Below are positions 30,293-46,984 of a stretch of 50,067 nucleotides of DNA, one piece after another. The stretch spans positions 1 through 50,067 of the forward strand of contig JALHRP010000026.1 of NCBI GenBank assembly GCA_022841365.1, read 5' to 3'. The DNA is from Chitinophagaceae bacterium. Its GTDB lineage: Bacteria > Bacteroidota > Bacteroidia > Chitinophagales > Chitinophagaceae. Both the position numbers and the translations under genes were made by a program. Positions within the stretch are counted from its first letter, which is position 1. Every line of letters begins with the position of its first letter. The notes under the pieces were generated by a model. The model was not told where the DNA came from and searched no databases. It saw nothing but the letters and a program-made list of their open reading frames with translations.

Positions 30293-31120
30293 ATGGGCCG
30301 AATTATTGGAATAGCAAATCAGAAAGGAGGAGTTGGTAAAACCACCACAGCAATTAATCTTGCTGCAAGTTTTGCTGTGCTTGAATATAAAACATTATTG
30401 GTTGATGCTGATCCGCAAGCCAACAGCACTACCGGCGTTGGGTTTGATTTGCACAATGTGCAGCAGAGCCTGTACGATTGTTTTGTAAATGGTGCAAATG
30501 CAAAAGATGTTGTATTGAAAAGTGAAATTCCACATTTAGATCTCATCCCATCACATATTGATCTGGTTGGTGCCGAAATTGAAATGATCAATCAACCCAA
30601 CCGTGAAGGAGTATTAAAGCATTTACTTGAACCGTTGAAAGATGATTATGATTTTATTGTAATTGACTGCTCTCCTTCGCTGGGTTTAATTACAGTAAAT
30701 GCATTAACAGCAGCCGATTCTGTTCTGGTTCCTGTGCAAACAGAATTTTTTGCATTGGAAGGTCTGGGTAAACTACTCAACACCATCAAAATTGTACAAA
30801 GCCGTTTAAATCCGCAATTGGTGATTGAAGGAATTTTAATGACCATGTATGATGGCCGTTTGCGTTTATGCAATCAGGTGGTGAGTGAAGTGCGCCGTCA
30901 TTTTGAAGGTATTGTATTCGACTCCATCATTCATCGTAATACACGTTTAAGCGAAGCTCCCAGTTTTGGCAAACCTGTTATTTTGTATGATGCAGATAGT
31001 AAAGGGTCTATAAACTATCTCAACCTTGCCAAAGAAATCTTACAACGCAACAACCTCACCAAAATGAACCAGGAAGATAAGATCATTGAAATGGAAGATG
31101 AGGAAGAAGCTGCTAGCTGA
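30293..31120 (+). CDS. parA: ParA/Soj-type ATPase
   Basis: 275 residues. The deviant Walker [21 protein letters not shown] near residue 8, [11 protein letters not shown], and [18 protein letters not shown] identify a ParA ATPase of the chromosome/plasmid segregation type. It is chromosomal-type in size and lacks an N-terminal helix-turn-helix. A short acidic tail ([13 protein letters not shown]) ends in a heptad repeat array whose first units form the last codons. The expected partner parB does not follow: the next gene is fmt, 161 bases away. I did not see a parS-like site but could not search exhaustively. Confidence 0.93.
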
Positions 31121-31154
31121 TAGAAAAAAGCTGCTAACTTCTAGCTATTAGCCG
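31107..31154. repeat. Heptad array overlapping the parA stop codon
   Basis: Units of 7 bases with consensus AGCTNNT: AGCTGCT, AGCTGAT, AGAAAAA, AGCTGCT, AACTTCT, AGCTATT, AGCCGTG. The parA stop lies inside the second unit, so the array supplies the last residues (AAS). Confidence 0.75.
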
Positions 31155-31232
31155 TGTACTTTGTTTACCTGTAAAACTAAACTCAGCTTTCTAAGTTTTA
31201 TATTTTGCTATTCATAAATCTGCAACCTTTTG

Positions 31233-31264
31233 CTTGCAGCTAGTAGCTCGTAGCTAGCTGCTTT
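31233..31264. repeat. Heptad array upstream of fmt, inverted relative to the one after parA
   Basis: Units TTGCAGC, TAGTAGC, TCGTAGC, TAGCTGC, about 80 bases from the array ending parA. Read on the minus strand the units resemble those at 31107, so the two arrays could pair into a hairpin over the parA-fmt spacer. Confidence 0.65.
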
Positions 31265-31269
31265 CTCTT

Positions 31270-31277
31270 TACTTTTG
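31270..31277 (+). promoter_or_regulatory. -7 element TACTTTTG, 4 bases before the fmt start
   Basis: Perfect TAnnTTTG match directly after the heptad array; 4 bases (CCCC) separate it from the ATG at 31282. Confidence 0.6.
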
Positions 31278-31281
31278 CCCC

Positions 31282-32301
31282 ATGGTAACGAACAAATCTC
31301 CACGTATTATTTTTATGGGTACACCTGAGTTTGCTGTTGCATCGTTGGATGCTTTGGTGAAAGAAGGCTACAATGTGGTGGCAGTTGTTACGGCTCCCGA
31401 CAAACCTGCCGGCCGTGGTATGAAGATGAATGAAAGTGCAGTTAAGAAATATGCTGTTGAACAAAACATCCCTGTTCTTCAACCCGAAAAATTAAAGAAC
31501 CCTGCTTTTATTGAAGAATTAAAATCATACAACGCAGATCTGCAGATTGTCGTAGCCTTCCGTATGTTGCCTGAACTGGTTTGGAATATGCCGGCAATGG
31601 GCACCATTAACGTACACGGAAGTTTATTGCCGCAATACCGTGGTGCTGCTCCTATTAACTGGGCGGTGATCAATGGTGAAAAAGAAACAGGTGTTACCAC
31701 ATTCAAACTGAAACATGAAATTGATACCGGTGATATTTTGTTACAGGAATCTTTTCCGATAGCTGAAAATGATACCGCAGGTGAAGTGCATGACCATATG
31801 AAAGAAGTTGGAGCGAAGTTACTGGTAAGAACAGTTGAAGGATTGGTGAACGGAACGTTGGAGGAGAAACCGCAGTCGTCAATCGTCAGTCGTCAATCGT
31901 CAGATACCCACTCATCACTCATCACTCATCATTCATCACTCAAACATGCTCCTAAAATTTTTACAGAAACCTGCAAAATAGATTTCAGCAAAACAACAGA
32001 AGAAGTGCATAATCTCATTCGTGGGCTATCTCCATTTCCCGGAGCTTTTACAAGTTTTCATGGAAAGATGATGAAGATCTACCGGTCGAAAAAGGAAGCG
32101 GATCGGGACGCTAAAGGCGGCCTGAACCCTGATGAACAAAACATTCAGGCCGGCGAAACCGTCCCGACCGAATTCATCACCGATGGAAAAAGCTTTTTAA
32201 AATTTGCCTGCAACGATGGCTATGTGCATGTGCTGGAGCTGCAACTCGAAGGCAAAAAGAAAATGATGATTGAAGATTTTTTGAGAGGCTACAGAAGTTA
32301 A
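31282..32301 (+). CDS. fmt: Methionyl-tRNA formyltransferase with an in-frame repeat insertion
   Basis: 339 residues, slightly longer than the usual 310-320. The N-terminal catalytic domain has IIFMGTPEFAVASLDAL, VVTAPDKPAGRG, the active-site stretch NVHGSLLPQYRGAAPINWA and EIDTGDILL. The enzyme formylates initiator Met-tRNA for translation start. Residues about 198-222 are an insert encoded by two adjacent 7-base-period repeat arrays, in the linker between catalytic and C-terminal (tRNA-binding) domains; frame is kept. The C-terminal domain begins at APKIFTETCKIDFSKTTEEVHN. The -7 element at 31270 suggests a nearly leaderless transcript. It is convergent with the gene at 32325. Confidence 0.95.
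   Translation: MVTNKSPRIIFMGTPEFAVASLDALVKEGYNVVAVVTAPDKPAGRGMKMNESAVKKYAVEQNIPVLQPEKLKNPAFIEELKSYNADLQIVVAFRMLPELVWNMPAMGTINVHGSLLPQYRGAAPINWAVINGEKETGVTTFKLKHEIDTGDILLQESFPIAENDTAGEVHDHMKEVGAKLLVRTVEGLVNGTLEEKPQSSIVSRQSSDTHSSLITHHSSLKHAPKIFTETCKIDFSKTTEEVHNLIRGLSPFPGAFTSFHGKMMKIYRSKKEADRDAKGGLNPDEQNIQAGETVPTEFITDGKSFLKFACNDGYVHVLELQLEGKKKMMIEDFLRGYRS
31872..31946. repeat. Two adjacent heptad arrays inside fmt
   Basis: First array: CAGTCGT, CAATCGT, CAGTCGT, CAATCGT. Second array: ACTCATC three times, ATTCATC, ACTCAAA. Both have a strict 7-base period and together encode about 25 residues in frame in the fmt linker. Confidence 0.85.
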
Positions 32302-32324
32302 AATAGAAGTTATGTTTATTATCC

Positions 32325-32870
32325 TTACTGATCAAAAGAAGATCCTTTTTTTATTTGATGTGAAAATTGATTCTTCTGTAGTAATGTGTTGAGAAATCGC
32401 CTGAATGTTTTACTAAGTCCATCTGCGAGATAATATACTTCATCCCCTTTTCCAACCTTCCCTTGTTTTTGAGCGGGGATATCAATAGTAGATCTTAAGC
32501 GATTACAGTCCAGGCAAATTGAAATCTGTGCCACAGCCTTCCCTTTTAGATAATATACAAACCCCACATGTGGATCAAAACAAGAAGCGGTTACACCCCC
32601 AAACGATTTTTTATCTCCAAATTTAGCATTCAGATTTTTTATAGTTGAGCTATCAAGTTGCTGTTGTTTTTTTATTGACTTTATTAATTGACCCTTTTCA
32701 TTGACAATGAAAATATCAGCGTCTTTTCCTCCTTCAAAATCATACATTATAACTTTATCAAATTTCAAATCAAGAAATGGATTTTTTGAAATCTGACCGA
32801 TTGAAATAAAAGGTATAGCTAACAATAAGAGCAGTATTCCCCGCTTATTTAAATAATTTCTTGACCTCAT
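32325..32870 (-). CDS. Hypothetical exported protein
   Basis: 181 residues with a signal-like N-terminus (MRSRNYLNKRGILLLLLAIPFISIGQ). The mature region has KFDKVIMYDFEGGKDADIFIVNEKGQL, a central cysteine pair SICLDCNRL and no motif I recognise. It is AT-rich compared with its neighbours and lies between two regions with heptad repeats, so recent arrival or relaxed selection is possible. It is convergent with fmt (23 bases between stops). Confidence 0.68.
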   Translation of the reverse strand: MRSRNYLNKRGILLLLLAIPFISIGQISKNPFLDLKFDKVIMYDFEGGKDADIFIVNEKGQLIKSIKKQQQLDSSTIKNLNAKFGDKKSFGGVTASCFDPHVGFVYYLKGKAVAQISICLDCNRLRSTIDIPAQKQGKVGKGDEVYYLADGLSKTFRRFLNTLLQKNQFSHQIKKGSSFDQ

Positions 32871-32988
32871 AAAACAAGATTACGATAATAAAAAATAAAG
32901 GAGTTGATTACTGAGTAATCTTCTCCTTTATTTAACCCCTTATATTCATTTATTACTAGCTGTGGTCAAGGTTTGTAACACAAGACGA

Positions 32989-33030
32989 GTGCACTTTGCA
33001 CTTTCAACTTCTAACTTTGTACTTGTTTTT
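32989..33030. repeat. Heptad array abutting the stop of the LysM gene
   Basis: Plus-strand units GTGCACT, TTGCACT, TTCAACT, TCTAACT, TTGTACT, TGTTTTT. On the coding (minus) strand the units read AGTnnAA and begin at the stop codon of the LysM gene (33029). Confidence 0.8.
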
Positions 33031-34021
33031 ATTTCCCCCACAACAATTCCGCATTAAACTTTTCTGCGCTTACACCTAATTGTGATGCAGCTGCATTACT
33101 TAACCGGAACATCAAACCGCTACCGGGACTTGTTTCTTCTACCCCACCTAATACTTTTGCATAAACTGCTTTCCCGTTTGCCGGATTTTTAATTAATACA
33201 ATCGTTCCTTTTTCTACACGGTCAATTAGGACATAATATTTACCATCACTCCAGCCACTGGTGCTTTTAAATACAGAACCTGCTCCTGCATTGCCATTCA
33301 CCTGTTTGCCGTTATTCGTCTGACGATTAAATTCATCTTTAAAAAAACCATTACCCGAATAACTGGCTGCAGACACGTCTATCTTTGGTTCTTCTTTTTT
33401 TACTTCCACTTTTGGAGGATCCTGTTTTACGGGTTCTTCTTTCTTTGCAATAACAGGCTCCTGCTTTTTAGGTTCTTCCTTTTTTACTTCAGCTTTCGGT
33501 TCCTGTTTTACCAGTGTTGGTTCACTTCGTACATTCATTCCCTGCGCTGCAAGGGGTGATAATGTTTTATCTACTTTCAAAAAGCCAATGATCACTTTAC
33601 TGCCAACACTCACCGCATCGCTGTTTAAATTATTCCATGATTTGATGGAAGCATTATCTGTTTTAAACAACTGGCTGATTTTTGTAACCGACTCTCCCTG
33701 TTTTACCACATGATAAACAGGTACCACTGTTTCATTTTCTTTTCTTGTTCCTGTTTGCCAGAAATTGACTTCATTCAACGGAATTTTTAATGCCTGACCA
33801 ATACTTAATGGCGAAGTAAGCTCCAGTCCGTTATAAGGTGCAAACACTCTAGGACTGAGGTTATAAATACGCCCGATGCTGTAAAAATTTTCCTTGGGGC
33901 CAATGCTGTGGTTCAGATAGGGCTGATTGCTGTTATCTAACTGCACCAGCAAAGGAGTAGTTTGTGCAAATGCTGCAATACTGATCAATAAAACAAAAGC
34001 AAAAGAAAAGGCTCTCTTCAT
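33029..34021 (-). CDS. Secreted protein with two LysM domains and a DPBB/RlpA-like C-terminus
   Basis: 330 residues, signal peptide ending AAFAQ (about residue 19). LysM-type repeats at about 30-80 (GPKENFYSIGRIYNLSPRVFAPYNGLE) and 105-155 (HVVKQGESVTKISQLFKTDNASIKSWNNL) bind peptidoglycan or chitin-like glycans. A long Lys/Glu/Pro linker (about 165-225, KEEPKKQEPVIAKKEEP) leads to a C-terminal beta-barrel-like segment (YYVLIDRVEKGTIVLIKN to AAASQLGVSAEKFNAELLWG) resembling the double-psi barrel of RlpA-like proteins. A cell-wall role is likely. A CATCTTTG element lies 22 bases upstream. Confidence 0.85.
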   Translation of the reverse strand: MKRAFSFAFVLLISIAAFAQTTPLLVQLDNSNQPYLNHSIGPKENFYSIGRIYNLSPRVFAPYNGLELTSPLSIGQALKIPLNEVNFWQTGTRKENETVVPVYHVVKQGESVTKISQLFKTDNASIKSWNNLNSDAVSVGSKVIIGFLKVDKTLSPLAAQGMNVRSEPTLVKQEPKAEVKKEEPKKQEPVIAKKEEPVKQDPPKVEVKKEEPKIDVSAASYSGNGFFKDEFNRQTNNGKQVNGNAGAGSVFKSTSGWSDGKYYVLIDRVEKGTIVLIKNPANGKAVYAKVLGGVEETSPGSGLMFRLSNAAASQLGVSAEKFNAELLWGK

Positions 34022-34100
34022 GATGGTTGTAATTTACAGAGCAAAGATGCAGAATTCTCAGAAAGAATCGTACCAAAGAAAAGCTTAACGATTCTTTTGC

Positions 34101-34108
34101 TAACATTG
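34101..34108 (+). promoter_or_regulatory. -7-like element TAACATTG before the RNase H gene
   Basis: Matches TAnnTTTG at 7 of 8 positions and ends 7 bases before the ATG at 34116. Confidence 0.4.
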
Positions 34109-34115
34109 CAGCCAT

Positions 34116-34751
34116 ATGAGTACGGCCAAACCGAAATACTATGTTGTATGGAAAGGGAAAGAACCCGGTATTTATACCAACTGGAACAATTGTAAACAAC
34201 AGGTAGAAGGCTTTGCAGGTGCGGCATACAAGTCATTTACAACCCGTATGGAGGCAGAGCTTGCTTACAAAGAACATTTTGCCAAACACATTTATAAAAA
34301 AGATAAAGAAACCGCTGTTAAAGATTACTCCGCTGTAGGCAATCCCATTCACGACAGCATTGTTGTTGATGCTGCCTGGAACAGTGTACAGAAAGATATG
34401 GAGTACCAGGGCATTTTGTACAAAACCAATTCACGCATTTTTCATATGGGGCCACTAGCAAATGGTACCAACAACATCGGCGAATTTTTAGCCATTGTAC
34501 ATGCACTCGGTTATTGCAAAAAACATGGATTGGAAAAAATGCCCATCTACAGCGACAGCCGGAATGCCATTGGCTGGGTGAAAGCAAAAAAATGCAAAAC
34601 CAATCTGGAACAATCTGCAAAGACGCAGCATATTTTCGATCTCATCCATCGTGCAGAAAACTGGCTGCAGGAAAATACATACAAAAACAAAATCCTGAAA
34701 TGGGAAACCAAAGTATGGGGCGAAAATCCTGCAGACTTTGGGCGAAAATAA
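34116..34751 (+). CDS. Ribonuclease H with an N-terminal viroplasmin-like domain
   Basis: 211 residues. The N-terminal 50 residues (KYYVVWKGKEPGIYTNWNNCKQQVEGFAGAAYKSFTTRMEAELAY) are the RNA/DNA-hybrid-binding viroplasmin domain of eukaryotic-type RNase H1. The catalytic domain shows the acidic set: D in SIVVDAAWNS, E in NIGEFLAI, D in IYSDSRNA and D in NPADFGRK. It degrades the RNA strand of RNA-DNA hybrids. The opening is a variant of the usual domain I motif, common in Bacteroidota. Confidence 0.93.
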   Translation: MSTAKPKYYVVWKGKEPGIYTNWNNCKQQVEGFAGAAYKSFTTRMEAELAYKEHFAKHIYKKDKETAVKDYSAVGNPIHDSIVVDAAWNSVQKDMEYQGILYKTNSRIFHMGPLANGTNNIGEFLAIVHALGYCKKHGLEKMPIYSDSRNAIGWVKAKKCKTNLEQSAKTQHIFDLIHRAENWLQENTYKNKILKWETKVWGENPADFGRK

Positions 34752-34854
34752 AATTGCTTCAATTTACCAATCACAAACCAACTTCAATTCGTTCATTATT
34801 TTCTGGCAGGGTTCTTGAAAATACAAGTCATTATTCACTTTAAAATTTACTTGT

Positions 34855-35145
34855 ATGAGCATGAAATTAATTTTCTCCTGTGTTGCAGCAGGTGCCGCAA
34901 TAGGCTTGTTACTGGCACCCGACAGTGGATCGGCTACCCGAAATAAAATTACACATACCATTGATGATATAAAAGAACGGTTGTATAAAGTAAAGTCGAA
35001 GGGTGCAGATGAACTGGAAGAGTTAAAAGAAATTTTCAGCCGTGAAATAACCGGATTAAAAGAAGACACACGTTCACGGATACTTGAACTGTTGCAGGCA
35101 GCAAAACAGGCAGGCATCAGAGTAAAAGAACAGATGGCTGTGTAA
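34855..35145 (+). CDS. YtxH-domain small protein
   Basis: 96 residues. N-terminal hydrophobic segment LIFSCVAAGAAIGLLLAPDSGSATR and then a long amphipathic helix (IKERLYKVKSKGADELEELKEIF), the hallmark of YtxH-like proteins. These are membrane-associated, often stress-induced, with unknown function. A terminator follows within 20 bases. Confidence 0.82.
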   Translation: MSMKLIFSCVAAGAAIGLLLAPDSGSATRNKITHTIDDIKERLYKVKSKGADELEELKEIFSREITGLKEDTRSRILELLQAAKQAGIRVKEQMAV

Positions 35146-35161
35146 TTGCAACGAAACGGAT

Positions 35162-35195
35162 CAAAAGGAGCCCGACGGCTCCTTTTGCTTTTTTA
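35162..35195 (+). terminator. Terminator after the YtxH gene
   Basis: Stem CAAAAGGAGCC / GGCTCCTTTTG with a short loop, then a T-rich tract. Confidence 0.9.
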
Positions 35196-35275
35196 CTTTT
35201 TTGAAGTTAACTTTCACTACCGGCAACGAGGAACAAAAAGACGATTCATTTTTTTTGAAAGGCTAATACGATCTT

Positions 35276-36919: not shown

Positions 36920-36922
36920 CCC

Positions 36923-38344
36923 TTAGCGCATCAGGATACGCCACTCTTTGGGATAATAATTATTGATGCGGTTTCCCAGCAGCTTTATCCATCCAAGCGG
37001 AACGTTGTTGTACATAGCCAGGGCCCAGCCTTTCTGTTCACTTGAAACGTTCAGTTCATTTCTTCGCAGATAGTCCAATGCCTGATTCAAATCCAGATCA
37101 ACTTTTACTGCATCTGTTTTCAGAATGGTTGATACTGCCAATGCATGCTCCGGCAGTAAATCATTTTTTGCAATGGTTCCCAGCTCTACACCAGCATAAC
37201 GCACTTTCAGTTCCTGCATCAGGTATTGTATGGTTTCATTCCACTGCGTTGGTACGGCTGCAATATGTTGTCCTTGTTTGATGAAACTGAATCCAACTGT
37301 TGATTGCAACCAGTTTGCTGCTAAAGTTGCTTCCTGCTTTGTTGCAAGCTGTGTGTGTTTTATTTTTAAACGAACAGTATCTGTCTCTTCTTTTTTTCTG
37401 AACGCTGCAATAAAAAAACCTTCGCCTTTTACTTTGTATGGCCAGAAACGATAACCATATACTCCTGTTGAAGATTGCACTTCATCAATCCCCCACTCTT
37501 CATCAACCTTCAACCTTAAACCATCAACCTTAAACTTTTCTTTTATCCAATCCAGTATGTCTTCATCTTCCTCAGTTGAATAAGAACAGGTAGAATAAAT
37601 CAGCACTCCATCTTCTTTTAAACAATTCCATGCATCGGCTAAAATCCTTTGCTGTCGCTGGCTGCAGAGTTGTACGTTTTCTTCGCTCCATTCGTTGATG
37701 GCATCCGGATCTTTACGAAACAAACCACTGCCGCTGCATGGCGCATCAATCACCAGTACATCAAACAGTCCTTCCAGCTTTGAAAAATCCCGTGGATCAT
37801 TATTGGTAACAAGCACATTGCTGCTGCCCCATTTAATGATATTCTCTTTGAGTATCTGCACTCTTGTTTGAATCACTTCATTACTCAGCAGCAAACTTTC
37901 TTTGCTGATGATGGATTGCAACAACGTTGATTTACCGCCGGGTGCTGCACAAAGATCAAGTACCACTAAAGCCTTTGAAAGATCCACTGTTTGTTTTACA
38001 GCCTGCTCTAAAAACATACTGCTGGCTTCCTGCACGTAATACGTTCCTGCATGAAAGAATGGATCTAATGTAAACGAAGGGCGTTCGCTGAGATAGTAAC
38101 CGGAGGAAGACCAGGGAACAGTTGAGTGAATGGTGAATGGTGAATGGTGAATCAACGTCTGATAATTTGAAACGAATGACTGATCATTACTTATTGACCA
38201 TTCATTATTGTCCATTGACCACTTCAATGGATTTATACGAACTGATACAACCTGCTCACCACTTGCATGCACCGTTTCAAACGCTTCTTTGTTGAAGCCT
38301 TTTGTATTATTGAGTGAACTCATCAAGGAAGCCGGTAGATTCAT
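36923..38344 (-). CDS. rsmF: rRNA cytosine-C5 methyltransferase (RsmF-like) with in-frame heptad repeat insertions
   Basis: 473 residues. The NOL1/NOP2/Sun core has the SAM-binding VVLDLCAAPGGKSTLLQSI (about 127-145), DAPCSGSGLFRKDPDA with C203 and IYSTCSYSTEEDEDI with C253, the two catalytic cysteines of m5C enzymes. A C-terminal RNA-binding (RsmF_B/PUA-like) domain covers about 310-473. Residues about 42-75 (between RINPLK and PWSSSGYYLSERPSFTLDP) and 270-282 are encoded by 7-base-period arrays and look like inserted low-complexity segments. The start overlaps the upstream membrane-protein gene by 38 bases. Confidence 0.92.
   Translation of the reverse strand: MNLPASLMSSLNNTKGFNKEAFETVHASGEQVVSVRINPLKWSMDNNEWSISNDQSFVSNYQTLIHHSPFTIHSTVPWSSSGYYLSERPSFTLDPFFHAGTYYVQEASSMFLEQAVKQTVDLSKALVVLDLCAAPGGKSTLLQSIISKESLLLSNEVIQTRVQILKENIIKWGSSNVLVTNNDPRDFSKLEGLFDVLVIDAPCSGSGLFRKDPDAINEWSEENVQLCSQRQQRILADAWNCLKEDGVLIYSTCSYSTEEDEDILDWIKEKFKVDGLRLKVDEEWGIDEVQSSTGVYGYRFWPYKVKGEGFFIAAFRKKEETDTVRLKIKHTQLATKQEATLAANWLQSTVGFSFIKQGQHIAAVPTQWNETIQYLMQELKVRYAGVELGTIAKNDLLPEHALAVSTILKTDAVKVDLDLNQALDYLRRNELNVSSEQKGWALAMYNNVPLGWIKLLGNRINNYYPKEWRILMR
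37499..37540. repeat. Heptad array inside rsmF (second insert)
   Basis: Minus-strand units AGGTTGA, TGGTTTA, AGGTTGA, AGGTTGA with 7-base period. They encode FKVDGLRLKVDE between catalytic motif IYSTCSYS and the following core. Confidence 0.65.
38118..38228. repeat. Heptad arrays inside rsmF (first insert)
   Basis: Minus-strand units GGTCAAT, GGACAAT, AATGAAT, GGTCAAT, AAGTAAT, GATCAGT, then further on ATTCACC three times and ATTCACT. Encodes about 34 residues in frame near the N-terminus. Confidence 0.82.
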
Positions 38345-38839: not shown

Positions 38840-39640
38840 TTAAAAACGAATGATAAAGTGTTCCTTCTCTTTCTGTTCTTTCCTCAAAAAAACCAGTCCA
38901 ATAAAAAACAGATCAATGGTTAAAGTTACAGACGGGTGTTGTTTGATCTGCTCCCATGCTTCTTCCATTTCTTTGCTCCAGTGAATATCATCAAACACAA
39001 ACAGTGTATCAGCAGTTGTTTGCGCAAGCAACTGTTCAAAATAACGAAGTGTTGGTTCTTTGCGGTGATTGCCATCAATAAAAATAAAATCAAAAGGCAT
39101 TGAAGATGCTGCAAGAGTTGATACGAGTGTTTCATCAAAATTTCCCCTAACCATTTTCACATTCTTCAACTGTAATTCATTAAACTGTTGTTGTGCTATT
39201 TCAGAAATAGCGATAGAGCCTTCCATTGTGATAACTGCAGCATCAGATTTTGCTTTAGCTAGATAGGCTGTGGTGATACCCAGTGAAGTTCCCAGCTCCA
39301 GTATTTGTGTTGGTTGAACATACTGTACCAGTCTGTACAACAGCTGTGCATATTTTTTTGGCTTTAGTGATGTAGCTGCAATCTGTTTCAGCACCCGTTG
39401 CTTTGTTAACCCTTTCACAGAACCGGCACCAAAATCTTCTACAGTAATAATTGTTTCATTCTTCAATAACCTGCTACGCTGCTCTTCAATTTCTTTATAT
39501 GCTGCATAGTTTGTTTTGTCATTCAACACGTTTGTAACCAGATCAAATACAAAAGGAGAATGAATACCGTGCCCCTTTCCATTTGCTGCAGTTAAGTAGT
39601 AGTTAAGATATTTTAAACCAAGTTGAAAAGCAGAATACAT
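38840..39640 (-). CDS. SAM-dependent O-methyltransferase-like protein
   Basis: 266 residues from the ATG at 39640 (MYSAFQLGLKYLNYYLTAANGKGHGIHSPFVFDLVTNVLND is the family-typical opening). Upstream in-frame ATG codons were rejected because they run through heptad repeats. The Rossmann methyltransferase core has ILELGTSLGITTAYLA, VITMEGS and FDFIFIDGNHRKEPTLRYFEQLL. The substrate is unknown. It is a member of the thyA-folA unit, followed 5 bases later by the membrane-protein gene. Confidence 0.85.
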   Translation of the reverse strand: MYSAFQLGLKYLNYYLTAANGKGHGIHSPFVFDLVTNVLNDKTNYAAYKEIEEQRSRLLKNETIITVEDFGAGSVKGLTKQRVLKQIAATSLKPKKYAQLLYRLVQYVQPTQILELGTSLGITTAYLAKAKSDAAVITMEGSIAISEIAQQQFNELQLKNVKMVRGNFDETLVSTLAASSMPFDFIFIDGNHRKEPTLRYFEQLLAQTTADTLFVFDDIHWSKEMEEAWEQIKQHPSVTLTIDLFFIGLVFLRKEQKEKEHFIIRF

Positions 39641-39643
39641 CAG

Positions 39644-39685
39644 AAAATGAAAAATTGAAAATAAAAAATAGGAAATGAAGAAGCG
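39644..39685. repeat. Heptad array before the O-methyltransferase start
   Basis: Plus-strand units AAAATGA, AAAATTG, AAAATAA, AAAATAG, GAAATGA, AGAAGCG: a strict 7-base period ending 4 bases from the start codon. Confidence 0.75.
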
Positions 39686-39693
39686 TAAGATGG

Positions 39694-39735
39694 TTCTACT
39701 TTTCAGTTTGAACTTTTTACTTTTCACTTTTCCTG
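39694..39735. repeat. Heptad array overlapping the folA stop
   Basis: Plus-strand units TTCTACT, TTTCAGT, TTGAACT, TTTTACT, TTTCACT, TTTCCTG. On the folA coding strand they read AGTnnAA, the same consensus as the array after the LysM gene, and they form the last residues (RKSEK) and the stop. Confidence 0.8.
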
Positions 39736-40226
39736 TCCCACTGCTGTATAGTAAATGAATAGGCATGTTTTTCATCTGCAGCAAAATCGGTGAACTTTGT
39801 TAACTCCCACTCGTTAATGTTGACTTCAGGAAAAAATACATCCGCTTCAAAATGCGCATGCACTCTTGTTAAATAAATACGGTTGGCTAAGGGCATTGCC
39901 TGTCCATAAATCTGTGCTCCGCCTGCAATACAGATTTCTTTAGTCTCCAGCTTTTTTGCCTGTTGCAGCGCATCCTCCAGCGAAACAGCAAACCATACAT
40001 TATCGTATGCAGATTGTAAATCTGCAGTTCGTGATACAATAATATTGGTGCGACCGGGCAACGGTTTACTGCCAACTGATTCAAAGGTTTTTCGTCCCAT
40101 GATCACGGGCAGGGCCCATGTGGTATTTTTAAAAAACTTCAGGTCAATGGGCAAGTGCCAGAGGAGTTCGTTATTACGACCGATGGCGTTGTTGGAAGAT
40201 GCAGCGACGATTAAACTGATTGTCAA
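39717..40226 (-). CDS. folA: Dihydrofolate reductase
   Basis: 169 residues. Motifs: SLIVAASSNNAIGRNNELLWHLPIDLKFFK (substrate and NADPH pocket), PVIMGRKTFESVG, KPLPGRTNIIVSR and EICIAGGAQIYGQAMPLANRIYLTRV. It reduces dihydrofolate to tetrahydrofolate and regenerates the cofactor used by ThyA, its neighbour 29 bases upstream. Its last five codons and stop are part of a heptad repeat array, so the C-terminus may vary between strains. Confidence 0.96.
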   Translation of the reverse strand: MTISLIVAASSNNAIGRNNELLWHLPIDLKFFKNTTWALPVIMGRKTFESVGSKPLPGRTNIIVSRTADLQSAYDNVWFAVSLEDALQQAKKLETKEICIAGGAQIYGQAMPLANRIYLTRVHAHFEADVFFPEVNINEWELTKFTDFAADEKHAYSFTIQQWDRKSEK

Positions 40227-40255
40227 TTTTGTAATTTATAATTGTTCTGATAAAC

Positions 40256-41050: not shown

Positions 41051-41094
41051 GGCTGCAAGTTAATTAAAAGCAGTAAGCATGCCGCAAAGGCTGT

Positions 41095-41301
41095 ATGGCT
41101 GTGGGGAAGATGTGGAAGAAAGCGGAACACTCATATTACCAGATTGCTTTCGAGCTGAGAAAAATTACCTACAAATTGGTATTTTATTATTACTACCCTG
41201 CTGTTTTCTTTGCTGTAGTTTATGGGTTGAAAAAAGAAATGTTTCAGGTGATTTCACCCATGGACAAAGGCCCTGCAGGAATTATTTTTATTGCAACATA
41301 A
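41095..41301 (+). CDS. Possible small membrane protein
   Basis: 68 residues, in the region between divergent thyA and the lipoprotein gene. The frame has a hydrophobic aromatic segment (LVFYYYYPAVFFAVVYGL) after a basic N-terminus with KMWKKAEHSYYQIAFELRK. Amino-acid composition looks plausible for a protein, but length and absence of a known family leave it uncertain; it may be chance. Confidence 0.25.
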   Translation: MAVGKMWKKAEHSYYQIAFELRKITYKLVFYYYYPAVFFAVVYGLKKEMFQVISPMDKGPAGIIFIAT

Positions 41302-41337
41302 AAGGTTCACATTTTAAAACCATCAAACTTTACAATT

Positions 41338-41817
41338 ATGAGAAAAACATTCATCGCATTGCTTTGTATTTCATTAATCCTTTCCCTTTCTTCTTTAAAA
41401 TGTAAAAAAGATAAAGAAGAAGAAGAAAACAGCGAGATCGTTGGTAACCCCGGCAATCCCCGTTTCAACTTACGCTTTACCAATGAAACCAATGTGGATA
41501 TGGATTTGTATGTACGAACACCCAATGGTACTGTCATCAGTTATGCCAATTCATTTGGTCAGGGCGGCACATTAGATGTGGATTGTCTTTGCGGATCATG
41601 CCCCGACGGACCAAGTGAAAATATTTACTGGCAGGATGGCACTGCACCCAATGGAACTTATCAATACTGGGTTGAGTATTATGATGATTGTAATGGCGGC
41701 AGCCCTTCATCTACTTTTACATTACGTTTAATGAAAAACGGAACCATACTGGAAACAAAAACAGGCACCTTAAGTGCCAGCAACCGAAAATCAACCGTTT
41801 ACTCTTTCACAAAGTAA
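41338..41817 (+). CDS. Hypothetical secreted protein, possible lipoprotein (DUF2135-like)
   Basis: 159 residues. The hydrophobic N-terminus is followed by SLKCKKDKEEEEN: a cysteine with acidic/lysine residues behind it fits a Bacteroidota surface-lipoprotein signal, though a lysine before the cysteine is unusual. The mature domain (FNLRFTNETNVDMDLYVRTPNGTVISY, GPSENIYWQDGTAPNGTYQYWVEYYDDC) resembles the YfaP-like DUF2135 beta-sandwich. Function unknown. A palindromic terminator follows. Confidence 0.75.
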   Translation: MRKTFIALLCISLILSLSSLKCKKDKEEEENSEIVGNPGNPRFNLRFTNETNVDMDLYVRTPNGTVISYANSFGQGGTLDVDCLCGSCPDGPSENIYWQDGTAPNGTYQYWVEYYDDCNGGSPSSTFTLRLMKNGTILETKTGTLSASNRKSTVYSFTK

Positions 41818-41824
41818 AACCAAT

Positions 41825-41854
41825 AAAAAACCCGGAACATGTTCCGGGTTTTTT
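41825..41854. terminator. Bidirectional terminator between convergent genes
   Basis: Perfect palindrome AAAAAACCCGGAACA / TGTTCCGGGTTTTTT with A and T runs on either side, serving the lipoprotein gene and proline dehydrogenase. Confidence 0.92.
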
Positions 41855-41855
41855 A

Positions 41856-43088
41856 TTATGCTGATTTTCTCCGTTTCAATTCCCGTTTAATTAATGCCAG
41901 CTCTCTGCCTGTTTGTCCGCTCATGGAACTGTTCTCCTGCGCCCTGCGCATAAGATAAGGAATCACATCTGCAATAGGACCAAAAGGAAGATACTTGCTC
42001 ACAGAATAACCTGCTTTAGCAAGGTTAAATGTGATATGATCACTCATACCATATAATTGACTGAAGTGTACATGCGGATGATGATGCTGCAATCCTTTAC
42101 TGTGCAGCAACTGTGCAGCCAGCAAATTGCTTTGCTCGTTATGCGATGCAACAATCACGGCAATACGATCTACATGCTGCAGACAAAATTCAACGGCACG
42201 GTTATAATCATTGTCGCTGCTTTCTTTATCGGGTTGAATAGGATCCTGATAACCCATCTCTGCTGCACGTTTCCGTTCTTTCTCCATATATGCACCACGA
42301 ACAATTTTTATTCCCAGGATGAAGTTGCGTTGCTCGGCTGCTTCATAACAATCATGGATGAACTGGTATCTGTCGTGCCGGTATAATTGTGCAGTATTGT
42401 ACACAACGGCTGAAGATTTATTGTATTGATCCATCATGAGCATGGTTAATGCATCAACCGGATCCTGTATCCAGGTTTCTTCTGCATCTACCAGCACACC
42501 TATTTTTTTAGCAGCAGCAGTAGAACAGATTTTTTCCATGCGGTTACAAACTTTTTGCCACTCTGTTCGCTCATCAGCACTCAATTGCTCCAATACTTTT
42601 TCGTAACGCTTAATCAAGGTTCCTTCTGCGGTATGCATCAACGCATCCATCTTTTCAAGCAGAGCAAAACGGGCAATACCGGTTACCTTGATACTCATAA
42701 ACGGAATATTGGCCTGTGTGGAAGCGTATTCAATCACTTTAATAAACTGTTCGCAGCTCTCATCTTTTTCTGCTTCCCCATAATCGCCTCCTTCAACACC
42801 ATAATCAAGGATTACCTGTACATGAAATTCTTCCAGCTTGTCTGCCACCTGTGCCGTTTCCTGCAGGGTTTCTCCACCTACAAACTGCTCAAACAATGTA
42901 TCCTTGATTAAACCTTTTACCGGCAAACCTGATTTAATAGCCCATGGAGTTAAACGTGTACCCAATTTCACCAGCCAGTTATACCCCATAGATGAAAACA
43001 GAAAATGTGCTTTCTTTAATTGTTTATCATCCTTATACTCAAATGCATTTGCGGTATTATCAAATGTAACTTTAGAAGAAGAATCCAT
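41856..43088 (-). CDS. Proline dehydrogenase (PutA domain type, single-function)
   Basis: 410 residues. Family motifs include YLPFGPIADVIPYLMRRAQEN near the C-terminus, LGIKIVRGAYMEKERKRAAEMGY, IAVIVASHNEQS and FVGGETLQETAQVADKLEEFHVQVILDYG. It oxidises proline to pyrroline-5-carboxylate with FAD, the first step of proline breakdown. No P5C dehydrogenase is next to it. Start chosen at the ATG that yields the usual N-terminus. Confidence 0.93.
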   Translation of the reverse strand: MDSSSKVTFDNTANAFEYKDDKQLKKAHFLFSSMGYNWLVKLGTRLTPWAIKSGLPVKGLIKDTLFEQFVGGETLQETAQVADKLEEFHVQVILDYGVEGGDYGEAEKDESCEQFIKVIEYASTQANIPFMSIKVTGIARFALLEKMDALMHTAEGTLIKRYEKVLEQLSADERTEWQKVCNRMEKICSTAAAKKIGVLVDAEETWIQDPVDALTMLMMDQYNKSSAVVYNTAQLYRHDRYQFIHDCYEAAEQRNFILGIKIVRGAYMEKERKRAAEMGYQDPIQPDKESSDNDYNRAVEFCLQHVDRIAVIVASHNEQSNLLAAQLLHSKGLQHHHPHVHFSQLYGMSDHITFNLAKAGYSVSKYLPFGPIADVIPYLMRRAQENSSMSGQTGRELALIKRELKRRKSA

Positions 43089-43136
43089 GCAATCGTAAAT
43101 TAAGAGGGCAAAGATAAATCAAAAAGACTCCCGCTC

Positions 43137-43988
43137 TCATTCTCCTTTGCGGTTAAACAAAACAAGTGCGTTTCTTACAAAGCCGGGTGACAGGTACAGC
43201 ATATGTGTTTTTTCGGGAGTGTGGATCGTCATTTTTATGTTGAGTTTTTTCTGCCATACCGAGCGGCTTACAATCAACAGATCATTTGTGCCGACAGGTA
43301 AATCTTTTAAACGCAGCCGGATTGGTTTTTCAAGCAGATTTTGCAGTTCAACAATTGTATTTCCGTTGATGAAAACTGAAACCGAGTCGTGGCTGCTTGA
43401 ATCAACAGTAGAAAATTCAACAACAATATCCTGCTGATCAATATCAAGGCTGAATTCGTTTTGAATAAAACGTTCCTGTGCAGGCAACAGAATACCGGAC
43501 CGTTCATACTGTTTATACAAAGCAGTGATATACTCATCTATTTCATCGTTTGCAGCAAAAGAAATGGTATCGGTAACTTTAACACAACTCATCACTTCTG
43601 TATTTCCGTTTTGCCATACCCAGTTACCCTGCAGCAAAAAGGAAGAATCACGCTGTTTATATTCAAGCAAGATTAACTGGAGGGCCTGGCAATCACTTTC
43701 TTTAATTGAAATAGCCCGTTGCACTTTTTGCCATTTAAAATCAATACGTCCGTTTACAGGAGAACCTGTTACAAAATAATCGCAACCATACACTGTACCC
43801 TTTTCTACCCCTCTTGTGTAAAGAATACCAAACCAGCTTCCTTCACTTTGAAGCAGTTCAAGTCTTACACGCATGCTTTTATCACCATCTTCATGCTTGT
43901 TTAACCTGCCTTCCCAAACTCCCGACAGGTTTTGAGCAGAGCTTTGAAACGAACAGAACAATAAAACGAATAGTAAAAATTTTGGCAA
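43137..43988 (-). CDS. Hypothetical secreted protein
   Basis: 283 residues with a signal peptide (ending FQSSAQ). The N-terminal region NLSGVWEGRLNKHEDGDKSMRVRLELLQSEGSWFGILY resembles a lipocalin-like or DUF-type beta-barrel seen in Bacteroidota secreted proteins. A later domain (VVEFSTVDSSSHDSVSVFINGNTIVEL) is probably an all-beta sandwich. No catalytic motif was seen and I could not assign a family. It is followed by proline dehydrogenase on the same strand. Confidence 0.7.
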   Translation of the reverse strand: MPKFLLFVLLFCSFQSSAQNLSGVWEGRLNKHEDGDKSMRVRLELLQSEGSWFGILYTRGVEKGTVYGCDYFVTGSPVNGRIDFKWQKVQRAISIKESDCQALQLILLEYKQRDSSFLLQGNWVWQNGNTEVMSCVKVTDTISFAANDEIDEYITALYKQYERSGILLPAQERFIQNEFSLDIDQQDIVVEFSTVDSSSHDSVSVFINGNTIVELQNLLEKPIRLRLKDLPVGTNDLLIVSRSVWQKKLNIKMTIHTPEKTHMLYLSPGFVRNALVLFNRKGE

Positions 43989-44040
43989 TTGGTTTTTAGT
44001 TGAAGATACTGACGCAATTGCAAATATTTCTTTAATAAAA

Positions 44041-44105
44041 AAACGTTTTTACAACTGAACACAGTCAACTGATGCGATGCCGTGTCTTCAACTGCAAAAA
44101 CGTTT
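44041..44105 (-). terminator. Long hairpin, probable terminator of lysC
   Basis: Arms AAACGTTTTTACAACTGAA (44041-44059) and its imperfect complement (44087-44105) enclose an inner GAACAC / GTGTCTTC-like stem; on the minus strand a run of eight T follows. It sits 24 bases past the lysC stop and 53 bases before the next start. Confidence 0.8.
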
Positions 44106-44128
44106 GTAAAAAACCTGTGATGAACTGA

Positions 44129-45451
44129 TTAATCCAAACCGAAAATTCCTTTATTTAACACCTGCAGTGTTTTTGTTTTGTATGCTGCAGGAACCAGTAA
44201 GGACACGTTGTGCGGACTGCCGCCATAACTCACCATACGAACAGGTATATCAGCAATACTTTCAAACAGTTTGCGGAGTATATGTTCTGTTTGGCCAATT
44301 TCATTTCCAACAATACTTACAATGGCTTGTTCTTTATCCAGCTCAACCGTACCAAATGCTTCCAGCTCACGGATAATTTCTTTTAAAGAACTGTTATTAT
44401 CAATGGTTAAGGAAACAGCCACTTCTGATGTGGTGATCATATCAATGGAAGTGCGGTATTTTTCAAACACTTCAAATACTTTCCGTAAAAAACCATAAGC
44501 CAGTAACATGCGGCTGCTTTTTATTTTAATAGCAGTGATGCCGTCTTTTGCTGCTACTGCTTTTACACCAACACTACCGGCTTCTTCGGTGATCAACGTA
44601 CCTTTTGCATCGGGCTGCATGGTGTTGAGGAGTTTCACAGGAATTTTGTAATGCTGCGCCGGCCAGATAGATGCCGGATGTAAAATTTTTGCACCGAAGT
44701 ATGCCAGCTCTGCTGCTTCATCAAAACTCAACTGCTCAATGGCAACTGTTTTTTGTACAATGCGTGGATCGTTGTTGTGCATGCCATCAATATCGGTCCA
44801 TATTTCACACACACTTGCATTAATAGCTGCTGCAATAAGTGAAGCTGAATAGTCACTGCCGCCACGTTTTAAATTATCTACTTCGCCTCTTGCATTGCGG
44901 CTGATATAACCTTGTGTAATAAAAATCTTTTTGTCTTTATGCTGATTGAGCAACTGGCTCAACTTTACTTTAATGCTGCCGATCTGTGGTTCTTCGTACG
45001 TATCAATCGTCATAAAGTCCAGTGCAGGCAACAGCAAATGATCAATTCCTTTTTCTTCCAGGTAACAACTGAACATTTTTGTGCTCATCAATTCGCCCTG
45101 TGCAAGAATATCTTTATTCAATGCTTCGTTAAAAGAAATTTTCAGAATGATATTTAAAAATTCAAAATGCTCTGCAATAATTACTCTGCATGCATCCTTT
45201 GCTTCTTTTGTAACCAATAACTCACTGATGAAGTTTTGATAATGTGCATTCAGTTTATCAATCTGGTCTTTGGCTGCACCTCTTTCCCCCGCTGCCAGTG
45301 AGTTACCGATTTCAACCAAGGAATTGGTTGTGCCGCTCAATGCACTCAACACCACAATCTTTGGTTCTTCGTCTCTGGTAACAAGTGCTGCTACATCATG
45401 CATTCTTTCCGGTTTACCTACTGAGGTGCCGCCAAACTTCATCACTTTCAT
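44129..45451 (-). CDS. lysC: Aspartate kinase
   Basis: 440 residues. Catalytic N-terminal domain (MKVMKFGGTSVGKPERM, GGSDYSASLIAAA, EIWTDIDGM) phosphorylates aspartate, the first committed step to lysine, threonine and methionine. The C-terminal half holds two ACT domains (KAVAAKDGITAIKIKSS and IVSIVGNEIGQTEHIL), the sites of feedback inhibition in the lysine-sensitive class. It is monofunctional, with no homoserine dehydrogenase. A hairpin-rich repeat lies directly before the start, see separate entry. Confidence 0.95.
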   Translation of the reverse strand: MKVMKFGGTSVGKPERMHDVAALVTRDEEPKIVVLSALSGTTNSLVEIGNSLAAGERGAAKDQIDKLNAHYQNFISELLVTKEAKDACRVIIAEHFEFLNIILKISFNEALNKDILAQGELMSTKMFSCYLEEKGIDHLLLPALDFMTIDTYEEPQIGSIKVKLSQLLNQHKDKKIFITQGYISRNARGEVDNLKRGGSDYSASLIAAAINASVCEIWTDIDGMHNNDPRIVQKTVAIEQLSFDEAAELAYFGAKILHPASIWPAQHYKIPVKLLNTMQPDAKGTLITEEAGSVGVKAVAAKDGITAIKIKSSRMLLAYGFLRKVFEVFEKYRTSIDMITTSEVAVSLTIDNNSSLKEIIRELEAFGTVELDKEQAIVSIVGNEIGQTEHILRKLFESIADIPVRMVSYGGSPHNVSLLVPAAYKTKTLQVLNKGIFGLD

Positions 45452-45463
45452 AATTCTGATTTT

Positions 45464-45495
45464 GCCCCCATCCCCTGAAGGGGTGTTGATACACC
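45464..45495 (-). repeat. GC-rich hairpin repeat in the lysC leader
   Basis: On the minus strand a GGTGT-ATCA-ACACC hairpin is followed by CCCCTTCAGGGGATGGGGGC, ending about 12 bases before the lysC start. Short CCCC...GGGG elements of this kind are often dispersed in Bacteroidota genomes; here it is the only clear copy in the window. Confidence 0.55.
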
Positions 45496-45726
45496 TTCTT
45501 AAGCTGGGAAATTTTTAATTTATTTTGTCAACTATTGTAAATCCATTTTTCTTTTGTTGCGACGCACACTTGCACCGATGAATCTTCTTCATCATCCCCC
45601 CGCCATCTTGCATGTTGTGTAACAACTTATTTTTGCTGATTTGCAAAGTCAATAAGCTTCTTCATTTGTGCAGACACCGCAACTGTAATTCTTTTCTGAG
45701 CAGTCAATCGTTATTAGTCGGCGAAA

Positions 45727-46803
45727 TTAAAGATTGAGATTGAATTTTCGTCCAACTTCTGTCAAATCTTCTGTTACTGTATGTAATAAAGGAATCCCTT
45801 CTTTCATTCGTATTGCTTCAAACTCACGTTCAGGGTCACCGGGTATCAGCACTTTCTCATATCCTTCAATTGGTTTTGCATCTCTGAAACGGCGGATCCA
45901 TTGATCCATATCTTTTTTAAACTCCTCTGCTTTGCGAAATGCATCAATCCGCATGGCGCCTAAAAAATGCCCCAACCCTTTGCCGGGCTGGTTTTGCGGC
46001 ATAGGAACATATGCAGGAAACGGCGGCACCCATGGACCATAATTGGCACCGCTCAATACAGCAGAAAAAATATCAACAACAGAACCCAGTGCATATCCTT
46101 TATGACTTCCATGTTCTTTATCACTACCCAAGGGCAATAAAGCTCCTTTGTTTTTTAACGCATGCGCATCTGTTGTGGAATGACCTTCTGCATCCTGGAT
46201 CCAACCCATTGGTGCTTCCAGATTTTTGCGTTGCAGAATTTCCAGTTTACCATTGGCTGCAGTTGTTGTGGCCATATCTGCAACAAACGGTGGTTCGTTT
46301 CCTGCAGGCACTGCAACAGCAATTGGATTGGTACCGAGCATTCGTTCGTTTGAAAAAGTAGGCGCTACTAATGCCGAAGCATTGGTCATGGCCATACCGA
46401 TCATGTCGTGTTGCAAAGCCATCATTGCATGATAACCTGCAATACCAAAATGATTACTGTTTTGTACACTTACCCATCCGCTGCCCACTGCTTTTGCTTT
46501 TTCTATAGCAACCTGCATGGCAAATGGCGCAACCACCAAACCCAATCCACTATCTCCATCAACCACTGCAGTAGAAGGCGTTTCATGAATGATGCGGATG
46601 TTGGGCGTTGCATTGATTCGTTTGGCTTCCCACAAACGAACATAACCACTCAATCTTGCAACACCATGCGAATCAATACCTCTTATATCAGCCGCCAGCA
46701 ATGCTTTGGAAGCAGTTGCAGCATCTGCTTCACTGCAACCCATTGCAAGAAATACCTGCTGAGTAAAAGAAAATAAATGTTGGTAAGAAAATACTTGGTC
46801 CAT
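45727..46803 (-). CDS. Ldh/malate dehydrogenase family NAD(P)-dependent oxidoreductase
   Basis: 358 residues from the ATG at 46803, chosen because a perfect -7 element overlaps the alternative upstream ATG at 46827. Hallmark motifs: ALLAADIRGIDSHGVARLSGY, WVSVQNSNHFGIAGYHA, AMTNASALVAPTF and MLGTNPIAVAVPA, those of the malate/L-lactate/ureidoglycolate dehydrogenase family that is unrelated to classical MDH. The substrate (L-lactate, malate or a 2-oxo acid) cannot be read. Gene stands alone. Confidence 0.92.
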   Translation of the reverse strand: MDQVFSYQHLFSFTQQVFLAMGCSEADAATASKALLAADIRGIDSHGVARLSGYVRLWEAKRINATPNIRIIHETPSTAVVDGDSGLGLVVAPFAMQVAIEKAKAVGSGWVSVQNSNHFGIAGYHAMMALQHDMIGMAMTNASALVAPTFSNERMLGTNPIAVAVPAGNEPPFVADMATTTAANGKLEILQRKNLEAPMGWIQDAEGHSTTDAHALKNKGALLPLGSDKEHGSHKGYALGSVVDIFSAVLSGANYGPWVPPFPAYVPMPQNQPGKGLGHFLGAMRIDAFRKAEEFKKDMDQWIRRFRDAKPIEGYEKVLIPGDPEREFEAIRMKEGIPLLHTVTEDLTEVGRKFNLNL

Positions 46804-46824
46804 ACTGTTACAAAAAAAGAAACC

Positions 46825-46832
46825 CAAAATTA
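46825..46832 (-). promoter_or_regulatory. -7 element TAATTTTG before the Ldh-family gene
   Basis: Perfect TAnnTTTG match on the minus strand, 21 bases before the ATG at 46803. It decides that start over the ATG at 46827, which lies within it. Confidence 0.55.
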
Positions 46833-46956
46833 ATGATACAATTAAACGAGCGAACGAATGATGAAACTTGCATTACAGAAAAAAGTGATTGTAACCTTCC
46901 GGCCGTCAGACAGGCGCAAGAGTTGATGTTATAAAAAACAATGCCGGTATACAAAC

Positions 46957-46984
46957 ACTCATCACTGCTTACTCATCACTCATA
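46957..46984. repeat. Heptad array abutting the stop of the DUF3467 gene
   Basis: Plus-strand units ACTCATC, ACTGCTT, ACTCATC, ACTCATA, 7-base period; on the coding strand they read AGT-phased units (AGTGATG, AGTAAGC) starting at the stop codon. Confidence 0.75.

What the first reader, a model, noticed from the sequence alone, without database searches (positions are those of the whole stretch)
31107..46984. A dispersed family of degenerate tandem repeats with a strict 7-base period
At least nine arrays share a 7-base period although their unit sequences differ: 31107-31154, 31233-31264, 31872-31946, 32989-33030, 37499-37540, 38118-38228, 39644-39685, 39694-39735 and 46957-46984, with a smaller one at 6152-6172. 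Units inside an array diverge but keep phase (for example ACT at fixed position), so this is not a simple microsatellite. Seven of the ten fall between 31 and 37.5-40 kb. Heptanucleotide short tandem repeats are known from heterocystous cyanobacteria; I do not know of a described family in Bacteroidota. Possible roles are mRNA 3' end processing, protein-binding sites, or selfish repeats spreading by slippage.
Basis: partly seen in the sequence, partly recalled or inferred. Interest (0 to 1): 0.8.

Follow-up and report, generated by a model that had tools for sequence, protein, structure and literature searches.

The report
Fast-changing seven-base hairpin repeats
Short DNA stretches built from seven-base units, often forming the two arms of a hairpin, sit at the same permissive spots in many Chitinophagaceae bacteria and can change sequence, sometimes both arms at once, faster than the DNA around them.

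Summary
A scan finds seven lag-7 islands in the window and none at lags 2-6 or 8-11. It is wider than stated: 80 relatives' fmt neighbourhoods (1.38 Mb) hold 221 lag-7 islands against 1-23 at lags 4-6 and 8-11, and 18 other family stretches 27 against 0-4. Forty stretches from other Bacteroidota show little, and so do the window genome's stretches that were not picked for hits.

Many arrays are arms of a quasi-palindrome. Inside genes most sit at fixed in-frame sites, the fmt linker and two spots in an RsmF-like methylase, with different units in different species.

In two Sediminibacterium-like genomes, 13 of 23 orthologous sites had hairpins in both. Both arms were replaced together at 6 (a seventh is borderline), and two others had the loop inverted. 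Arm homogenisation and spacer inversion are published signatures of template switching (PMC8604942, passages).

Best explanation: heptad quasi-palindromes that turn over by template switching, seven-base slippage and exchange with a genome-wide pool; the exchange is inferred. Closest known case: Nostoc trnL intron P6b. In the window most palindromes are decayed.

The parts
31107..31154 (.). Degenerate GCTGCTA-type array over the end of the ParA-like gene (stop at 31120); first arm of a possible inverted pair with 31233-31264
   Evidence: lag-7 identity 0.56, 0/10000 shuffles; below the island cut; sequence
31233..31264 (.). TAGTAGC-type array just upstream of fmt; inverted relative to 31107-31154
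   Evidence: island 31232-31266; 0.91 identical in L048
31872..31946 (+). Two in-frame arrays (TCGTCAA-type, then ACTCATC-type) coding residues 197-222 of fmt, between the two Pfam domains
   Evidence: island 31866-31949; Pfam domains 8-185 and 225-338; first array replaced in L048, second the same; no hairpin excess in folding, 160/200 shuffles as good
31282..32301 (+). fmt, methionyl-tRNA formyltransferase, host of the in-frame arrays
   Evidence: Pfam PF00551 and PF02911
32989..33030 (.). Intergenic AACTTTG/AACTTCT-type array
   Evidence: island 32989-33025; 0.81 identical in L048
37499..37540 (-). Site B: in-frame AACCTTC-type array in the RsmF-like gene (residues 269-282)
   Evidence: island; same place periodic in other loci, relative position 0.54-0.59; protein alignment
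38118..38228 (-). Site A: in-frame imperfect palindrome, GTGAATG-type arm then ATTGACC-type arm, in the RsmF-like gene (residues 39-76)
   Evidence: first arm is an island; fold z -2.55, 3/200 shuffles as good; L048 has other hairpins here
36923..38344 (-). RsmF-like 16S rRNA methyltransferase gene, host of sites A and B
   Evidence: Pfam PF17125, PF01189, PF13636
39641..39739 (.). Inverted pair: GAAAA-type arm (39641-39679), spacer, TTTTC-type arm (39694-39739), between a methyltransferase-like and a DHFR gene
   Evidence: islands, 16/21 inverted match; fold not better than shuffles, 32/200; 0.97-1.00 identical in L048
46957..46984 (.). Short CACTCAT array between an Ldh_2 gene and a DUF3467 gene
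   Evidence: lag-7 identity 0.67, 2/10000 shuffles; TRF 4 copies
6129..6172 (.). Short TGTTGAT array at the start of a DoxX-like gene
   Evidence: 13/10000 shuffles; island 6135-6171 at >=19/28

Best explanation
The arrays belong to a loose family of small (about 60-110 bp) dispersed quasi-palindromes whose arms are made of degenerate seven-base units. They persist where extra DNA is tolerated: short intergenic regions, often beside a stop codon, and a few in-frame sites in genes. No single sequence is conserved; what is kept is the period and, in young copies, the hairpin. Proposed working: (1) DNA polymerase switches template between the arms, which copies one arm onto the other and can invert the loop; (2) seven-base slippage adds or removes whole units; (3) now and then the nascent strand or a repair tract picks up a related hairpin elsewhere in the genome, so that both arms change together to another type already present there. 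They are mostly neutral or mildly selfish; old copies, such as the fmt one in the window, lose pairing and keep the period. Shown: period, dispersal, positional conservation with unit turnover, joint arm replacement, loop inversion. Inferred: template switching as the cause, and the ectopic step. The size of seven is unexplained.
For: Lag-7 islands 221 against 1-23 at lags 4-6 and 8-11 in 80 loci; 27 against 0-4 in 18 background stretches. 25 of 43 neighbouring islands match inverted against 87 of 430 between sites. Same in-gene sites, different units: fmt 34 of 35 islands at relative position 0.58-0.68, 38 of 74 linkers periodic at 7 and 0-3 at other lags. Arms pair better with their own partner than with that of other species: fmt 0/5000 permutations. 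Two 90%-identical genomes: 6 of 13 hairpin sites with both arms replaced, own duplex -29.2 against crossed -12.9, and 2 loop inversions. Both hairpin types have dozens of matches in both genomes. Array length changes of >=5 are multiples of 7 in 17 of 51 against 5 of 67 elsewhere. Arm homogenisation and spacer inversion as outcomes of template switching: PMC8604942, passages.
Against: No donor-to-target copy was seen directly; the window's site A has no close copy in its genome, only matches of 17-29 bases. Window hairpins are weak: fmt and 39638-39742 do not beat shuffles. The RsmF arm test is weaker: 27/5000 by energy but 434/5000 by ungapped matches, and 2 of its 18 sequences look mis-cut. 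Ten of 23 sites were dropped and the sites were chosen by similarity to the two types. Shared units within a genome are only a mild excess (21% against 15% of pairs at >=16/21; G000 31% against 14%). Most array length changes (34 of 51) are not multiples of 7. L048 arrays mostly resemble the window's.
Confidence: 0.5

Rival explanations
1. Plain heptanucleotide tandem repeats that arise by polymerase slippage at each site and decay; inverted arrangement and shared units are by-products.
For: Period is the most constant feature; near-perfect long arrays exist (L027 17065-17156); length steps favour multiples of 7. Heptamers are reported as the most abundant longer repeats in many bacterial genomes (Mrazek 2007, not read, as cited in passages of PMC4679880 and PMC4692102).
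Against: Slippage makes direct repeats, yet neighbours match inverted in 25 of 43 and direct in 4 of 43; both arms change together and loops invert; dozens of related copies in one genome.
Confidence: 0.17
2. Mobile palindromic elements of the REP or MITE kind, moved by a trans-acting enzyme, whose sequence diverges quickly.
For: Dispersed copies of the same hairpin type in one genome; a different palindrome (GAGCGAAGTCGA core) sits at the window's site A in L048; in-frame palindromic inserts are known for Rickettsia palindromic elements (PMC10969869, passages).
Against: No islands in 20 Y1_Tnp neighbourhoods (86 kb); no conserved ends seen by eye in the copies printed; none of the four presence/absence cases that one search printed is a clean empty site.
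Confidence: 0.18
3. Selected RNA hairpins (terminators, 3'-end stabilisers) kept by compensatory change.
For: 64 of 109 arrays between co-directional genes lie within 20 bp of the upstream stop, purine-rich there and pyrimidine-rich 20-50 bp on; only 10 of 116 fully intergenic islands lie between divergent genes.
Against: Similar elements lie inside fmt and RsmF-like genes. T/A-tract flanks in 4 of 16 heptad and 9 of 51 other hairpins in the family set, 8 of 40 and 0 of 7 in the second set. 43 of the 109 also lie within 20 bp of the downstream start. Stop codons in purine-rich arms bias 'near a stop'. No Rfam match in the window at gathering thresholds.
Confidence: 0.13

Closest known systems
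P6b stem-loop of the Nostoc trnL (tRNA-Leu UAA) group I intron, Class I TDNGATT and Class II NNTGAGT repeats (PMC4476775, passages)
   Same: Degenerate seven-base units build a stem-loop; one class is replaced by another repeatedly at the same site.
   Different: One intron in cyanobacteria; here dozens of sites per genome, intergenic and in-frame, in Chitinophagaceae, with loop inversion seen.
Heptanucleotide simple sequence repeats, e.g. TAACTGA arrays (PMC4679880; abstract, section 12, passages) and GGGAATC arrays of xanthomonads (PMC4692102, passages)
   Same: Period 7, mostly intergenic, arrays between the same genes vary in sequence and length.
   Different: Those are described as direct repeats of one unit; here units are degenerate and diverse, and often paired as inverted arms.
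REP / REP-like palindromes with RAYT transposases (PMC3733652, abstract start in a listing and one passage)
   Same: Small dispersed intergenic palindromes.
   Different: No arrays near 20 Y1_Tnp genes; no fixed core sequence.
Rickettsia palindromic elements (PMC10969869, passages)
   Same: Palindromic DNA kept in frame inside housekeeping genes.
   Different: About 150 bp with family sequences; here heptad arms without conserved sequence.
Template-switch homogenisation of short inverted repeats (PMC8604942, passages; yeast)
   Same: Arm homogenisation and spacer inversion.
   Different: There single events in existing repeats; here with period 7, dispersal and whole-type replacement.

Membership tests
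Heptanucleotide simple sequence repeats | Excess of period 7 over neighbouring periods | tested here: met
Heptanucleotide simple sequence repeats | Near-identical direct copies of one unit | tested here: inconclusive
   some near-perfect arrays (L027 17065-17156), most degenerate; neighbouring arrays mostly inverted
Nostoc trnL P6b type heptad stem-loop | Heptads on both sides of a stem, with class-for-class replacement at one site | tested here: met
   6 of 13 sites with both arms replaced; in the window only site A folds better than shuffles
Nostoc trnL P6b type heptad stem-loop | Lies in a group I intron of tRNA-Leu | tested here: not met
   window arrays are intergenic or in protein genes; no Rfam match in the window
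REP elements with RAYT | Elements beside a Y1_Tnp (RAYT) gene | tested here: not met
   0 islands in 20 neighbourhoods of 4.4 kb or less
REP elements with RAYT | Conserved tag (GTAG or CGTC) at one end | not tested
   no systematic search made
MITE | Terminal inverted repeats with target-site duplication and empty sites | tested here: inconclusive
   no clean empty site among the four cases printed; duplications not searched
Intrinsic terminator | Hairpin followed by T-tract | tested here: not met
   tract flanks in 4 of 16 and 8 of 40 heptad hairpins, other hairpins 9 of 51 and 0 of 7; single cases not excluded

The most novel reading that the evidence does not exclude
A sequence-free repeat: hairpin 'slots' in which the inherited feature is a period of seven plus palindromy at fixed genomic places, while the letters come from a genome-wide pool and are swapped as a unit between slots, by ectopic template switching or an unknown copying enzyme, inside housekeeping genes as well as between genes.
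Probability: 0.33. Interest if true: 0.8.

Novelty: new variant of a known kind. Interest (0 to 1): 0.6.

Why it matters
If right, it extends a curiosity known from one cyanobacterial intron to many sites per genome in another phylum, and offers natural sites where template switching, loop inversion and seven-base slippage can be counted. It would make the old question of why bacteria favour seven-base repeats testable. It also shows two housekeeping genes that tolerate hypervariable in-frame stretches, and warns against using such regions for phylogeny or primers.

Tried and rejected
A general seven-base mutational bias of all non-coding DNA: rejected, since intergenic DNA outside arrays has no lag-7 excess. 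REPs moved by RAYT: no arrays in 20 Y1_Tnp neighbourhoods. A known structured RNA: no match in the window at gathering thresholds. Intrinsic terminators: no clear tract excess. One consensus unit: fitting 279 islands gave only mixed classes such as AcTcAcc and aGTTnnn. Strong genome dialects: only a mild excess. Purine-rich arm first as a special mark: weaker than it looked, since other strong hairpins show it too, 36 of 51 in the family set. Clean insertions: not found; one search printed four cases, one of them an anchoring error in fmt (L053/L054). Scripts that went wrong: (wrong pattern, 2 of 81 loci) was redone as (74 of 81); one search printed stray BLAST text, its useful lines remain; one tally (multiples of 3) is a coding slip and is not used.
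Full report
CHECK. The window is G000:C26 of a 4.56 Mb draft in 326 contigs. A scan for >=20 matches in 28 positions gives seven islands at lag 7, none at lags 2-6 and 8-11, one each at 12 and 13 and three at 14. In 450 kb (window plus 20 stretches, of which those on C2, C4, C11, C15, C24, C29 and C39 were picked because one search had hits there) there are 31 islands at lag 7, 1-4 at lags 5, 6, 8 and 9, 8 at lag 3, and none at lag 7 in three Markov-2 simulations. In the 11 stretches without hits the count is 4 in 220 kb, hardly more than the 3 at lag 9. So the window is a dense patch of a moderately populated genome.

HOW WIDE. Of the 373 fmt relatives found, the best 80 were kept; the nearest named isolates are Lacibacter. 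These 80 loci (1,383,197 bp) hold 221 lag-7 islands in 58 loci, against 23 at lag 8, 9 at lag 9, 7 at lag 6 and 1-3 at lags 4, 5, 10 and 11; a Markov-3 simulation gave 2. Eighteen stretches elsewhere in family genomes (341,750 bp; 20 were asked for) gave 27 against 0-4, in 8 of 18 stretches. Outside the family, 20 stretches from the order and class gave 10 against 0-5, and 20 from other classes 6 against 0-5. The pattern TCATCACTCATCACTCATCA (up to 2 mismatches) occurs in 34 of 147 genomes of the family; its backward control, which is itself a heptad array, is the abundant one in others such as G003, G044, G060 and G082.

ANATOMY. Many arrays come as inverted pairs. Of 43 neighbouring island pairs in the 80 loci, 25 match inverted at >=15 of 21 and 4 direct, against 87 of 430 inverted matches between different sites; in G000 4 of 8 against 20 of 56, no difference worth the name, which I put down to one unit dominating there. 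The purine-rich arm comes first in 22 of 25 and 4 of 4, but other strong hairpins share this order in 36 of 51. Folding as DNA gives a 25-bp stem for L117 2464-2560 (z -7.8), z -5.6 for the L120 hairpin at the same place and z -5.8 for L123. In the window, site A has z -2.55 (3/200 shuffles as good), while the fmt array (160/200) and 39638-39742 (32/200) do not beat shuffles; L100 (z -1.5) was cut before the end of its second arm.

PLACES. In the 80 loci 99 of 221 islands are in ORFs (45%, random positions 90%), 81 between co-directional, 25 between convergent and 10 between divergent genes, and 6 at locus edges; ORFs were called by a simple longest-frame rule. Thirteen window genes were traced in the 80 loci plus window: of 228 islands, 75 fall in them, 35 in fmt (29 of 81 loci; 34 at relative position 0.58-0.68), 36 in the RsmF-like gene (21 of 58 loci; 20 at 0.06-0.15, 14 at 0.54-0.59, 2 at 0.67-0.68) and 4 elsewhere. 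The other in-ORF islands were not examined. In fmt the site is the linker between Formyl_trans_N (residues 8-185) and Formyl_trans_C (225-338). The linker could be extracted in 74 of 81 loci; 38 reach 13/21 at lag 7 and 0-3 at any other lag from 4 to 11, with units that differ between species. Among RsmF site A linkers, extracted in 44 of 58, the 26 short ones have mean lag-7 identity 0.41 against 0.22-0.30 at lags 4-6 and 8-11. Site B keeps its length in nearly all of the 58 aligned proteins as I read the alignment (exceptions L077, L080, L085, L089), so there the period has come in without a change of length. Between co-directional genes, 64 of 109 arrays lie within 20 bp of the upstream stop and 43 within 20 bp of the downstream start.

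TURNOVER. Window and L048 are 91% identical. In fmt the first array is TCGTCAA-type in one and AAGTGGA-type in the other (21 bases longer) while the second is nearly unchanged, and at RsmF site A L048 has instead two hairpins with the core GAGCGAAGTCGA. At the other window islands compared, the two are 0.81-1.00 identical. Crossing arms among species weakens pairing: fmt (21 of 74 linkers, insert >=60) -18.6 own and -14.4 other, 0/5000 permutations as good; RsmF site A (18 of 44) -19.2 and -16.0, 27/5000, but 434/5000 by ungapped matches, and two of the 18 (L057, L075) look mis-cut. Length differences of >=5 at arrays are multiples of 7 in 17 of 51, against 5 of 67 at other indels; some intervals overlap, so these counts are not independent.

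THE BEST CASE. L117 (Sediminibacterium sp. Gen4) and L120 are 90% identical. The hairpin at L117 2470-2562 has 57 matches at E<=1 in its genome, itself included and palindromes counting on both strands. At E<=0.001 the L117 type has 35 matches in its own genome and 33 in the other; the L120 type has 45 in its own and 37 in the other. From 20 stretches of one genome and 35 of the other, chosen from these matches, plus L117/L120 themselves, 23 orthologous island sites could be compared. Ten were dropped because no strong hairpin was found in one or both, in some because the anchors cut the site. Of 13, six have both arms replaced (mean identity below 0.8): own duplex energy -29.2, crossed -12.9, own better in six of six. 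L117/L120 2457, at 0.80 and so counted as conserved, behaves alike (-43.0 and -29.9 own, -19.8 and -19.5 crossed). Of the other six, two have the loop inverted: L252/L288 (0.94 as reverse complement, 0.56 direct) and L269/L279 (1.00 and 0.55). The choice of sites favours these two types, so this is not a genome-wide rate.

MECHANISM. Arm homogenisation and spacer inversion are the two outcomes of polymerase template switching between inverted repeats (PMC8604942, passages with abstract). Seven-base slippage fits part of the length steps. Neither alone gives a jump of both arms to another type already common in the genome; I infer an ectopic exchange, which no call shows directly. In the window's own genome site A has no close copy, only matches of 17-29 bases. 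Selection for an RNA hairpin could also keep arms paired, but the in-gene copies and the lack of a tract excess speak against terminators. A RAYT-type mover is not supported: Y1_Tnp genes are in 44 of 60 family genomes, but none of 20 neighbourhoods holds an island. I could not explain the seven.

KNOWN. Degenerate heptads that build a stem-loop and are replaced class for class are known from the Nostoc trnL intron (PMC4476775, passages). Heptamer arrays in five Bacteroidetes are in PMC4679880 (abstract, section 12, passages); PMC4692102 (passages) reports heptamer arrays between the same genes with extensive length and sequence variation in two xanthomonads. Nine paper searches listed no paper on heptad palindromes in Chitinophagaceae; only the best-ranked titles were listed and the library lacks most subscription journals, so this is weak evidence of novelty.

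Noticed in passing
L048 16866-16925 (orthologous to window 38118-38228): Two hairpins with the core GAGCGAAGTCGA sit in frame in the RsmF-like gene where the window has heptads. The pattern GAGCGNAGTCGAAG (up to 1 mismatch) has 11 hits in the window's genome against 1 for the backward control.
   Followed up: partly
L053/L054 intergenic site printed: L054 has CCCC...CCTGAAGGGG-type palindromes where L053 has a heptad array: another case of one hairpin kind in place of another.
   Followed up: no
80 fmt loci (L048-L127): A smaller excess of period 8 (23 islands, against 1-9 at lags 4-6 and 9-11) besides period 7.
   Followed up: no
L027 17065-17156 (G000:C29): A near-perfect GATGAGT array of about ten units, the youngest-looking array in the sample.
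   Followed up: no
L267 2979-3140 and its relative L285: Repeated remnants that look like tRNA 3' ends (GGTTCGATTCCTGGCGAGGCCAC), with heptad-like AAGAAATAAG stretches between them; tRNA finder not run.
   Followed up: no
window 37499-37540 and orthologues (RsmF site B): Seven-base period inside a stretch of nearly constant length in a conserved domain, which plain expansion by slippage does not explain.
   Followed up: partly
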